This document shows positions 37,124-39,282 of a stretch of 64,000 bases of DNA, piece by piece. Position numbers and translations under genes: made by a program. Position 1 is the stretch's first letter, and each line of letters opens with the position of its first letter. Source of the stretch: Chloroflexota bacterium (GTDB lineage Bacteria > Chloroflexota > Anaerolineae > Anaerolineales > UBA4823); contig JAKQIM010000042.1 in the NCBI GenBank assembly GCA_029557965.1, positions 16,377 to 80,376 of the forward strand, written 5' to 3'. The notes beneath the pieces were generated by a model that was not told the DNA's origin, did no database searches, and saw only the letters and a program-made list of their open reading frames with translations.

Positions 37124-38086
37124 ATGGCAAATAATGCTACTCCCCAAATTATGAAGCAGGGCCGGCTGACGCCGTGGTTATACCTGGCGCCGGCAATCAT
37201 CGTGATGGGCTTTTTTATCATCTACCCCATGTTCACCACGATCTGGCTCAGTTTTCAGAACCGGGATGGTACACAACCCGCCAGCGCCACCTGCGTAGAA
37301 GGCCGCCCGTGCTGGGGCATGTTCGAAAACTACCGCTACGCCCTGACCGCCGAACTGAACACCAGCACCATCCAGACCACATGGCAGACATTTTGGACCT
37401 CTTCCTACGGCAACACCATCAAATGGATCGCTTTCATGGTCAGCGGCACGGTAGGGATCGGTCTGTTCTTTGCGGTCTTGGCCGAACGGGTCAAGTATGA
37501 GGCACTGGCAAAAGCCATCATTTTCATGCCAATGGCCATTTCCTTCGTTGGGGCCGGCGTGATCTGGGGCTTCGTTTACGATTACGGCGCGGGAGATAAA
37601 CAAATCGGCCTGCTCAACGCCATCATCACCGGCCTGGGGTTCAAGCCCATGGCCTTTATGTCAACCCCCGGCGCCAACACAATTGCCTTGATCGTGGTGG
37701 GCATCTGGATCTGGACCGGCTTTTGCATGACCGTGCTGGCCGCGGCACTCAAATCGGTGCCCGATGAGATCCTCGAAGCGGCGCGCGTGGATGGCGCCAA
37801 CGAATGGCGGGTATTTTGGTCTGTCATGGTGCCGATCATCATGCCCACCATCACTGTGGTGGTCACCACCATGGTGATCAACGTCCTCAAGCTGTTTGAC
37901 ATCGTCTATGTGATGACAGGCGGCAATTACGGCACCGAGGTGATCGCCAACCGCATGTACACCGAGATGTATATCAACTTTAATACCGGGCGCGGCACTG
38001 CGGTAGCGGTGATCCTGGTGGTGCTGATCATCCCCTTTGTTTACCTGAATATTCGCCGCTTCTTGGAACAGGAGGCGATGAGATGA
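37124..38086 (+). CDS. Sugar ABC transporter permease, MalF/AglF-like
   Basis: 320 residues from ATG 37124 with GGGAG upstream. Six or so transmembrane helices: first at about residue 18-40 (LYLAPAIIVMGFFIIYPMF), then a long outer loop with two Cys (CVEGRPC), then the permease core with EAA loop (EILEAARVDGANEWRVF). Forms the membrane channel with the next gene. Overlaps it by 4 bases (ATGA). No ATPase gene in the locus. Confidence 0.92.
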   Translation: MANNATPQIMKQGRLTPWLYLAPAIIVMGFFIIYPMFTTIWLSFQNRDGTQPASATCVEGRPCWGMFENYRYALTAELNTSTIQTTWQTFWTSSYGNTIKWIAFMVSGTVGIGLFFAVLAERVKYEALAKAIIFMPMAISFVGAGVIWGFVYDYGAGDKQIGLLNAIITGLGFKPMAFMSTPGANTIALIVVGIWIWTGFCMTVLAAALKSVPDEILEAARVDGANEWRVFWSVMVPIIMPTITVVVTTMVINVLKLFDIVYVMTGGNYGTEVIANRMYTEMYINFNTGRGTAVAVILVVLIIPFVYLNIRRFLEQEAMR

Positions 38087-39282
38087 GCCAGAGCAAAATT
38101 ACCCGCAGCAGTATCAATCGTTTCTTCAACCGCATGCCTCTGCACCTGGCAGTCATCGGCCTGATGCTCATCTGGCTTATCCCTACCATTGGCCTGCTGG
38201 TCACCTCGCTGCGCCCGGTACAGTCGATCAACACCAATGGCTGGTGGATGGTCATGGCGGCCCCTCCGGGGATGGAATCGTACAACCAGTACTGCGGAGA
38301 ATGCCACGGACCAGACGGCAGCAAGATCGAAACCGCCGATCTGAGCGACCCGGCTGTGATCGAACAGTATCCACGCTCAATCCAACTGCTGGGCATGCTG
38401 CGCCAAGAGATCGATGGCCAGCCGCACATGGGCGACCTCGAGCTGCCATCTGCCCAAGAAGCCGCCGATATCGCTGCTCAGCTAAAGAAGATGGCCGGCG
38501 GCGAAGTCACCCCCCGGCTGACGCTCAACAACTACATCGACGCCCTGGTGGGCTACCGCGGCACCAACAATTACGTAGATGACTGCGAGGCCGGGGCCCA
38601 GGCTGCCGGCATGAACTGCAACATCTCAGACCTGCTCAACCCACGCGGCATGGGGCGAGCCTTCATCAACAGCCTGATCGTGACCATCCCGGCGACTATC
38701 CTGCCGATCTTGTTTGCGGCCTTTGCCGGGTATGCCTTTGCCTGGCTCGATTTCAAGGGCCGCTATTGGCTGTTCGCCATCCTGGTGGGGCTGCAAGTCA
38801 TCCCACTGCAAATGACGCTGGTCCCAATCTCTCGCCTATACGCACAACTGGGCCTGAACGGCACCTTCTGGGGCGTGTGGCTTTTCCACACCGGCTTTGG
38901 CATGCCCTACTCGATCTACCTGATGCGCAACTTCTTGGGCACCCTGCCGCGCGACCTGTTCGAATCTGCTTACCTGGATGGGGCCTCCCACTGGACTGCC
39001 TTCTATAAGCTGGCCATCCCGCTGGCCATGCCGGCTATCGCCGCGCTGGCGATCTTCCAATTCCTGTGGGTCTGGAACGACCTGCTGGTTGCGCTGGTCT
39101 TCTTAGGCGGCAAGCACCCGGTGATGACCTACCAGATCAGCAACATGGTCTCTTCGCTGGGCGCCGGTTGGCACCTGCTGACGGCTGCGGCCTTCTTATC
39201 CATGCTGCTGCCGATGATCGTTTTCTTCGCCTTCCAACGCTACTTTGTGCGCGGTATGCTGGCAGGGGCCGTCAAAGGATAA
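38083..39282 (+). CDS. Sugar ABC transporter permease (MalG/AglG-like) with inserted c-type cytochrome domain
   Basis: 399 residues against about 280 for simple MalG. TM1 is at about 20-43, then GWW (53-55) as in AglG-like proteins, then residues about 60-140 are a cytochrome c: YNQYCGECHGPDG with haem-binding C71-x-x-C74-H75, ADLSDP, a distal-ligand Met116 in GQPHMGDLE, and a closing helix (AQEAADIAAQLKKM). After another 45 residues with Cys169 and Cys179 the permease resumes at about 190 (TM2, five helices in all after it), with EAA loop SAYLDGASHWTAFY. The insert lies outside the membrane, where haem c is attached. The frame is unbroken. See findings. Confidence 0.93.
   Translation: MSQSKITRSSINRFFNRMPLHLAVIGLMLIWLIPTIGLLVTSLRPVQSINTNGWWMVMAAPPGMESYNQYCGECHGPDGSKIETADLSDPAVIEQYPRSIQLLGMLRQEIDGQPHMGDLELPSAQEAADIAAQLKKMAGGEVTPRLTLNNYIDALVGYRGTNNYVDDCEAGAQAAGMNCNISDLLNPRGMGRAFINSLIVTIPATILPILFAAFAGYAFAWLDFKGRYWLFAILVGLQVIPLQMTLVPISRLYAQLGLNGTFWGVWLFHTGFGMPYSIYLMRNFLGTLPRDLFESAYLDGASHWTAFYKLAIPLAMPAIAALAIFQFLWVWNDLLVALVFLGGKHPVMTYQISNMVSSLGAGWHLLTAAAFLSMLLPMIVFFAFQRYFVRGMLAGAVKG
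38260..38502 (+). other. Cytochrome c domain within the permease gene
   Basis: Codons 60-140. CGECH at 38293-38307; distal Met codon at 38428-38430. C71 to M116 is 45 residues, close to small class I bacterial cytochromes (about 49 in c551, from memory). Confidence 0.88.

What the first reader, a model, noticed from the sequence alone, without database searches (positions are those of the whole stretch)
38083..39282. ABC sugar permease with a c-type cytochrome inserted in its first outer loop
The MalG/AglG-like permease is interrupted after TM1 by residues 60-140 that form a recognisable class I cytochrome c: CGECHGPDG, ADLSDP, a distal Met in PHMGD, and a closing EAADIAAQLKKM helix. The frame is open and the permease resumes with TM2 and the EAA loop. 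I know of no characterised sugar ABC transporter with a covalent haem. The haem would sit outside the membrane near the binding protein docking site, so electron flow or redox state could gate sugar uptake, or the complex could deliver electrons. The neighbouring permease has a CVEGRPC loop that may contact it.
Basis: partly seen in the sequence, partly recalled or inferred. Interest (0 to 1): 0.93.

Follow-up and report, generated by a model that had tools for sequence, protein, structure and literature searches.

The report
Sugar importer with built-in haem domain
A family of sugar-uptake permeases in Anaerolineae bacteria carries a small cytochrome c domain in its first outer loop, predicted to bind a haem on the outside of the cell and likely to act there as a redox switch on sugar import, an arrangement for which our paper searches found no description.

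Summary
The open frame 38083-39282 is a MalG/SugB-type ABC permease with a class I cytochrome c domain (about residues 59-144) between TM1 and TM2. It is not an assembly join: the 120 database relatives listed and 52 of 80 genome loci, including the isolates Pelolinea submarina and Levilinea saccharolytica, carry CxxCH there. AlphaFold2 gives the domain pLDDT 90, and the 50 structural matches shown are all cytochromes c or proteins with such a domain.

One correction: the proposed distal ligand Met116 is replaced in 40 of 172 distinct sequences, while the preceding His115 is invariant (172 of 172), so bis-histidine haem is more likely.

The permease sits with a lipoprotein SBP, an AglF partner, often LacI and TreS; the nearest fold is the trehalose importer SugB. 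The domain was probably gained once and lost about three times with its neighbours kept. In the complete Pelolinea genome it is the only match to two class I cytochrome models; COX1, bd oxidase and NrfA were not found, yet Ccm genes remain.

Best reading, inferred: an outward-facing redox module that tunes alpha-glucoside import. No function is shown. Seven open-access searches aimed at such a protein found no description.

The parts
34431..35468 (+). LacI-type regulator, first gene of the cluster
   Evidence: PF00356/PF13377; a tblastn hit to it in 59 of 80 loci, some hits weak
35672..37030 (+). Sugar-binding lipoprotein (AglE-like SBP); LSAC lipobox and Ala/Thr/Pro-rich linker
   Evidence: Weak NCBIfam matches to GlcS/NgcE-type SBPs, far below their cut-offs; hit in 75 of 80 loci; lipobox recognised by eye
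37124..38086 (+). AglF-like partner permease, with C-x5-C (CVEGRPC) outer loop
   Evidence: PF00528 74.7 bits; overlaps the AglG start by 4 bases; hit in 79 of 80 loci
38083..39282 (+). AglG/MalG/SugB-type permease with inserted cytochrome c domain
38140..38208 (+). TM1 (residues 20-42)
   Evidence: predicted helix
38257..38514 (+). Class I cytochrome c domain (residues 59-144 as modelled)
38293..38307 (+). CGECH haem-attachment motif (C71, C74, H75)
   Evidence: 172 of 172 aligned distinct sequences, which were chosen for having CxxCH; none of the 27 domain-lacking loci keeps a domain with a broken motif (by eye)
38425..38427 (+). His115, likely distal haem ligand
   Evidence: 172 of 172; also 12 of 12 distant members P0121-P0132
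38428..38430 (+).
   Evidence: M 132, L 27, V 7, I 3, T 3 of 172
38584..38619 (+). C168...C179, invariant cysteine pair of the remaining outer loop (probable disulphide)
   Evidence: 172 of 172; a like pair in 14 domain-lacking loci by pattern and eye; absent in P0132
38650..39279 (+). Permease core TM2-TM6, with EAA loop about residues 291-310
   Evidence: PF00528; fold match to SugB and MalG; EAA loop recognised by eye
39330..40961 (+). TreS-like maltose/trehalose glucosyltransferase
   Evidence: TIGR02456 857 bits, cut-off 678; hit in 50 of 80 loci

Best explanation
The gene encodes a MalG/SugB-type sugar ABC permease with a class I cytochrome c domain inserted in its first outer loop, predicted to hold a covalent haem between His75 and His115 and likely to act as an outward-facing redox switch that tunes sugar import. 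Shown by sequence and comparison: the fusion, its conservation, the gene neighbourhood, the invariant CxxCH and His115, and close relatives without the domain. Predicted: the cytochrome fold and the outer-side location. Inferred: haem attachment by Ccm, bis-His ligation with a lowered potential, an alpha-glucoside such as trehalose as substrate, about three losses of the domain, and the regulatory effect on the binding-protein docking face.
For: The domain is conserved across distant Anaerolineae, with CxxCH and His115 fixed, and it has a confident cytochrome fold. The neighbouring genes are the same with and without the domain: among 13 loci read as losers, hits to AglF 13, SBP 12, LacI 11, TreS 10, so transport itself does not seem to need it; that favours an accessory, regulatory module over a core part. 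In the 13 genomes read as domain losers no COX1 or cytochrome bd match was found, against 3 of 13 keepers without one, as expected if the module matters where redox conditions change. In Pelolinea no COX1, bd oxidase, NrfA, PF00034 match or second PF13442 match was found, so a plain electron-carrier role lacks an evident partner there.
Against: No biochemical data. The oxidase association rests on about three independent losses and cannot reach significance once kinship is counted (2-3 independent pairs), and incomplete MAGs may hide genes. Pelolinea and two relatives (L017, L071) keep the domain although no such oxidase was found. Ccm presence is not clearly associated with the domain (12 of 13 against 10 of 16, p 0.09), and in the window's relatives PF01578 is near-universal (55 of 61). 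A sealed bis-His haem reacts poorly with small ligands (established knowledge), so what it would sense is open.
Confidence: 0.4

Rival explanations
1. Structural or docking role: the haem mainly holds the loop domain folded, and the domain stabilises docking of the lipoprotein binding protein, much as bis-His cytochrome c550 (PsbV) is regarded as largely structural in photosystem II (recalled).
For: The haem motif and fold are kept together and are lost together. No redox partner is evident in Pelolinea. The loop site carries unrelated insertions in Paenibacillus homologues, so it is a tolerated or useful docking site.
Against: Relatives without the domain keep the same neighbouring genes, so docking seems to work without it. 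A haem is a costly way to stabilise a loop.
Confidence: 0.25
2. Electron relay: the domain passes electrons between an outside donor or acceptor and another cytochrome, with the sugar permease serving as membrane anchor or co-localising uptake with respiration.
For: 10 of 13 domain-bearing genomes examined have COX1 or cytochrome bd; 9 of 13 have PF13442 matches besides the permease, while 0 of 7 domain-lacking genomes tested have any. L064 carries two CxxCH domains in a row.
Against: In 4 of 13 domain-bearing genomes the permease is the only PF13442 match. Pelolinea shows no PF00034, COX1, bd or NrfA match either. No oxidoreductase gene was seen in the window's operon; other loci were compared only by the window's genes.
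Confidence: 0.2
3. Apo-domain or near-neutral insertion: the domain is tolerated and does little.
For: Loss of the domain is seen. No function is known.
Against: C71, C74, H75 and H115 are kept over members only about 55% identical; no decayed intermediates seen.
Confidence: 0.07
4. Assembly or gene-calling artefact.
For: None beyond one chimeric-looking database entry (P0092).
Against: 120 of 120 listed relatives and 52 of 80 genome loci have the fusion, including a complete isolate chromosome.
Confidence: 0.005

Closest known systems
Mycobacterial trehalose importer LpqY-SugABC, SugB subunit (PDB 8hps_B, 7cad_B)
   Same: Best fold match of the whole model; trehalose-linked gene neighbourhood here through TreS; lipoprotein SBP (LpqY recalled)
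   Different: The SugB chains matched are 257-273 residues long, too short to carry the insert
E. coli MalG (MalFGK2)
   Same: Same permease family and fold
   Different: No room for the insert; the window protein scores 76.5 bits on the MalG model, well below its equivalog cut-off of 261
Class I cytochromes c (cytochrome c6, CcoP domains of cbb3 oxidase)
   Same: Fold and CxxCH
   Different: Usual Met distal ligand not conserved; His115 instead; domain sits inside a permease loop
Bis-His class I haem proteins: PsbV cytochrome c550 (1mz4) and the M58H mutant of Nostoc cytochrome c6 (4h0k)
   Same: Among the structural matches; their His ligation is recalled, apart from the M58H in the 4h0k entry title
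   Different: Free-standing or photosystem II-bound proteins, not transporter domains
Integral membrane cytochrome c urate oxidase (PMC4562309; search listing and start of abstract only)
   Same: By its title, a membrane protein with a cytochrome c part
   Different: An oxidase, not an ABC transporter

Membership tests
MalG/SugB-type permease of type I ABC sugar importers | BPD_transp_1 domain over its curated cut-off | tested here: met
   57 bits, cut-off 26.4
MalG/SugB-type permease of type I ABC sugar importers | MalG/SugB fold | tested here: met
   AF2 model, Foldseek E 3.6e-9 to SugB (8hps_B), 1.3e-7 to MalG (2r6g_G)
MalG/SugB-type permease of type I ABC sugar importers | Genes of partner permease and binding protein alongside | tested here: met
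   SBP-AglF-AglG order in the window; SBP hit in 75 and AglF hit in 79 of 80 loci
MalG/SugB-type permease of type I ABC sugar importers | Associated ATPase (MalK/MsmX type) | not tested
   The genome was not searched for one
E. coli MalG equivalog (NF008231) | Score over the equivalog cut-off | tested here: not met
   76.5 bits against 261
Class I c-type cytochrome domain (PF13442) | CxxCH haem-binding motif | tested here: met
   CGECH, residues 71-75
Class I c-type cytochrome domain (PF13442) | Score over the Pfam gathering cut-off | tested here: not met
   21.8 bits against 27 in the window protein; some relatives pass, e.g. Pelolinea 28.7 bits
Class I c-type cytochrome domain (PF13442) | Cytochrome c fold | tested here: met
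Class I c-type cytochrome domain (PF13442) | Distal Met ligand | tested here: not met
   Met116 in 132 of 172 only; His115 in 172 of 172; 9 of 165 distinct domains have no Met from residue 71 to 137 and 10 of 12 distant members have none in the 72 residues from CxxCH. Conservation only, no ligand geometry
Class I c-type cytochrome domain (PF13442) | Covalently bound haem | not testable with these tools
   Needs haem stain or mass spectrometry; two PF01578 matches, CcmF- and CcmC-like by size, are in the genome
TreS (for the neighbour gene) | TIGR02456 over cut-off | tested here: met
   857.3 bits against 678.35

The most novel reading that the evidence does not exclude
A widespread ABC importer family is itself a haem protein: an outer-face bis-His cytochrome in the permease makes sugar uptake redox-controlled, and in fermenters such as Pelolinea the cytochrome c maturation system is kept mainly to equip this sugar importer.
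Probability: 0.3. Interest if true: 0.93.

Novelty: new variant of a known kind. Interest (0 to 1): 0.83.

Why it matters
It would be the first sugar ABC importer known to me with a covalent haem, and the source names seen simply call it a permease. It would link nutrient uptake directly to redox state, and would give a reason why an apparently non-respiring anaerobe keeps cytochrome c maturation genes. It is directly testable in two cultured species, Pelolinea submarina and Levilinea saccharolytica, and in natural pairs with and without the domain.

Tried and rejected
Assembly join: rejected on independent genomes. Met116 as distal ligand: rejected on conservation. Alignment register alone did not settle it: PDB profile alignments put either Met116 (a cytochrome cy) or Pro114 (a CcoP) opposite the usual Met. 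CVEGRPC of AglF as haem contact: 49 of 51 domain-bearing and 13 of 27 domain-lacking loci have a comparable Cys pair; the six loss-lineage loci printed have it and the five never-gained or outgroup loci printed do not, so it follows the clade, not the haem.

Ccm as a marker of the domain: weak (12 of 13 against 10 of 16), and among 61 relatives 12 of 12 with the full insert and 43 of 49 without it have PF01578. Oxidase association: 10 of 13 against 3 of 16, and 0 of 13 in genomes read as losers, but only 2-3 independent pairs. The genome of L017 has the domain but no PF01578 match. The operon is not uniform: a TreS-like hit lies within the fetched stretch in only 38 of 52 domain-bearing loci and LacI in 36 of 52 (some contigs end early). 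A hit in G035 (query 20-67, a 351-aa frame) was not followed up.

Origin of the domain: a profile search returned 19 short proteins, three of them named as transport permeases by a source and none studied further, so no stand-alone donor was identified. Literature: seven searches aimed at such a protein (two searches returned no paper, and only the listed papers' titles and abstract starts were seen, 20 of 267) and three on related points, all in open-access PMC, gave no description of a cytochrome-bearing sugar ABC permease; most papers of subscription journals are not held. Passages only were seen of PMC5481317, PMC4653795 and PMC11748557. The model coordinates were not among the script files, so ligand distances were not measured. 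The two structure predictions were of single chains; the complex was not modelled.

Census of c-type cytochromes in Pelolinea is incomplete: three profile searches (PF13442, PF00034, PF02335) plus 103 readings of forward-strand CxxCH-like DNA sites in 90 stretches (some sites seen twice). A filter left 21 frames of 75 aa or more; the 8 printed look cytosolic (by eye), the other 13 failed the length and hydrophobic-start filter and were not read. The genome has 273 such DNA sites (138 in the control), of which the tool listed the first 100, all forward; multihaem families other than NrfA were not searched.

Full report

IT IS A REAL, CONSERVED FUSION. The protein search scored 7,999 candidates, all below E 0.001 (a capped list); the 120 listed all have CxxCH, and the 119 aligned have it at the same place. 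A scan of species genomes returned its best 80 loci: 52 with the domain, 27 without, 1 truncated. Isolates include Pelolinea submarina (complete chromosome) and Levilinea saccharolytica (two copies). Among 61 near relatives 12, the window's own genome included, have the full insert; the other 25 genomes with a hit match only the first membrane helix or another short stretch. In 400 genomes drawn from the phylum, 10 have the full insert, all in the window's own order, the window's genome included. One relative, L064, has two such domains in a row.

THE LIGAND. In 172 distinct aligned sequences, chosen for having CxxCH, His115 is invariant and Met116 is M in 132, L 27, V 7, I 3 and T 3. The 12 distant members found with L064 also have His followed by I, L or V, and 10 of them have no Met in the 72 residues from CxxCH. 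Nine of 165 distinct domains have no Met at all between residues 71 and 137. So His115, not Met116, is the likely distal ligand. In class I cytochromes a second His usually lowers the potential (established knowledge; not measured here).

EVOLUTION. On a tree of the permease core (83 rows, 57 with and 26 without the domain) 4 changes are the fewest on the best tree, and 2 are forced by well supported branches. Rooted on Paenibacillus-type homologues, this reads as one gain at the base of a Chloroflexota clade and three losses (L067/L068; the clade of L052, L053, L055-L060 and L062; L051). No domain-lacking locus keeps a cytochrome domain with a broken CxxCH (by eye). The neighbourhood is shared: in the 52 domain-bearing loci a hit to AglF lies nearby in 51, SBP in 49, TreS in 38 and LacI in 36; in 13 loci read as losers the numbers are 13, 12, 10 and 11. 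Two loci read in detail (L015, L017) have an MGH1/GH63-type hydrolase between AglG and TreS. The window's last gene of the cluster is TreS by a curated model (857 against 678 bits), which suggests trehalose or maltose as substrate (inferred).

HAEM SUPPLY AND PARTNERS. The window's genome (56% complete) has two PF01578 matches on contig C55, in frames of 700 and 315 residues, like CcmF and CcmC, near a frame with two CxxCH. Among 29 genomes with a scored domain state, a COX1 or cytochrome bd match is present in 10 of 13 with the domain and 3 of 16 without; the 13 genomes read as losers have none. Kinship reduces this to 2-3 independent pairs, so it is a pattern, not a test. PF13442 matches: 13 of 13 domain-bearing genomes (the permease itself included) and 0 of 7 domain-lacking genomes tested. 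In Pelolinea submarina the permease is the only PF13442 match; PF00034, COX1, bd and NrfA searches found nothing there, yet a Ccm cluster is present. In three more genomes (those of L017, L043, L071) the permease is also the only PF13442 match and PF00034 gave none, but that of L043 has bd oxidase and NrfA. Pelolinea is listed as a strictly anaerobic fermenter in PMC5481317 (passages only). A partial reading of CxxCH-like DNA sites found no exported cytochrome among the frames read.

HOW IT LIKELY WORKS. Because close relatives keep the same gene neighbourhood without the domain, it is accessory to transport. Because the haem motif and His115 are fixed wherever the domain was found, the haem is probably the point of it. 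Because Pelolinea shows no evident electron partner, a switch that responds to the outside redox state and changes binding-protein docking or gating is preferred to an electron relay (0.4 against 0.2); a structural role is the main rival (0.25). All these mechanism steps are inferred.

KNOWN OR NEW. The parts are known kinds (MalG/SugB permease, class I cytochrome c). I know of no characterised sugar importer that combines them, and seven open-access searches aimed at it showed none. Where a source names the protein, it is only as an ABC or alpha-glucoside permease. I file it as a new variant of a known kind.

Noticed in passing
L064:9995-11566: Permease of 524 aa with two consecutive CxxCH domains in the first outer loop, an apparent dihaem version; a search with its outer-loop region listed 12 relatives, all with a single CxxCH.
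   Followed up: partly
L037, L038 (Levilinea saccharolytica): Two copies of the haem-bearing permease gene on one contig of an isolate, identical in the permease core used for the tree.
   Followed up: no
L153 (Pelolinea submarina 1005000-1024999): Ccm cluster (CcmC-, CcmF- and CcmE-like frames, partly by eye) with no CxxCH frame listed in the 20 kb, in a genome whose only PF13442 match is the permease.
   Followed up: partly
L074-L080, L082-L085: AglG homologues of Paenibacillus, Cohnella and others carry unrelated inserts at the same loop, so it looks like a recurrent site for added sequence.
   Followed up: no
P0092: Database protein almost identical to the window's permease for about 295 residues, then joined to an unrelated sequence; looks chimeric.
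   Followed up: no
window 32745-33551 and 33578-34015: Two neighbouring proteins that look like FHA-domain proteins (motif recalled, not tested).
   Followed up: no
plasmid record CP069395.1, 14865-15818: A Chloroflexota plasmid record encodes a 73% identical permease in two aligned pieces covering 86% of the query, perhaps a domain-less version.
   Followed up: no
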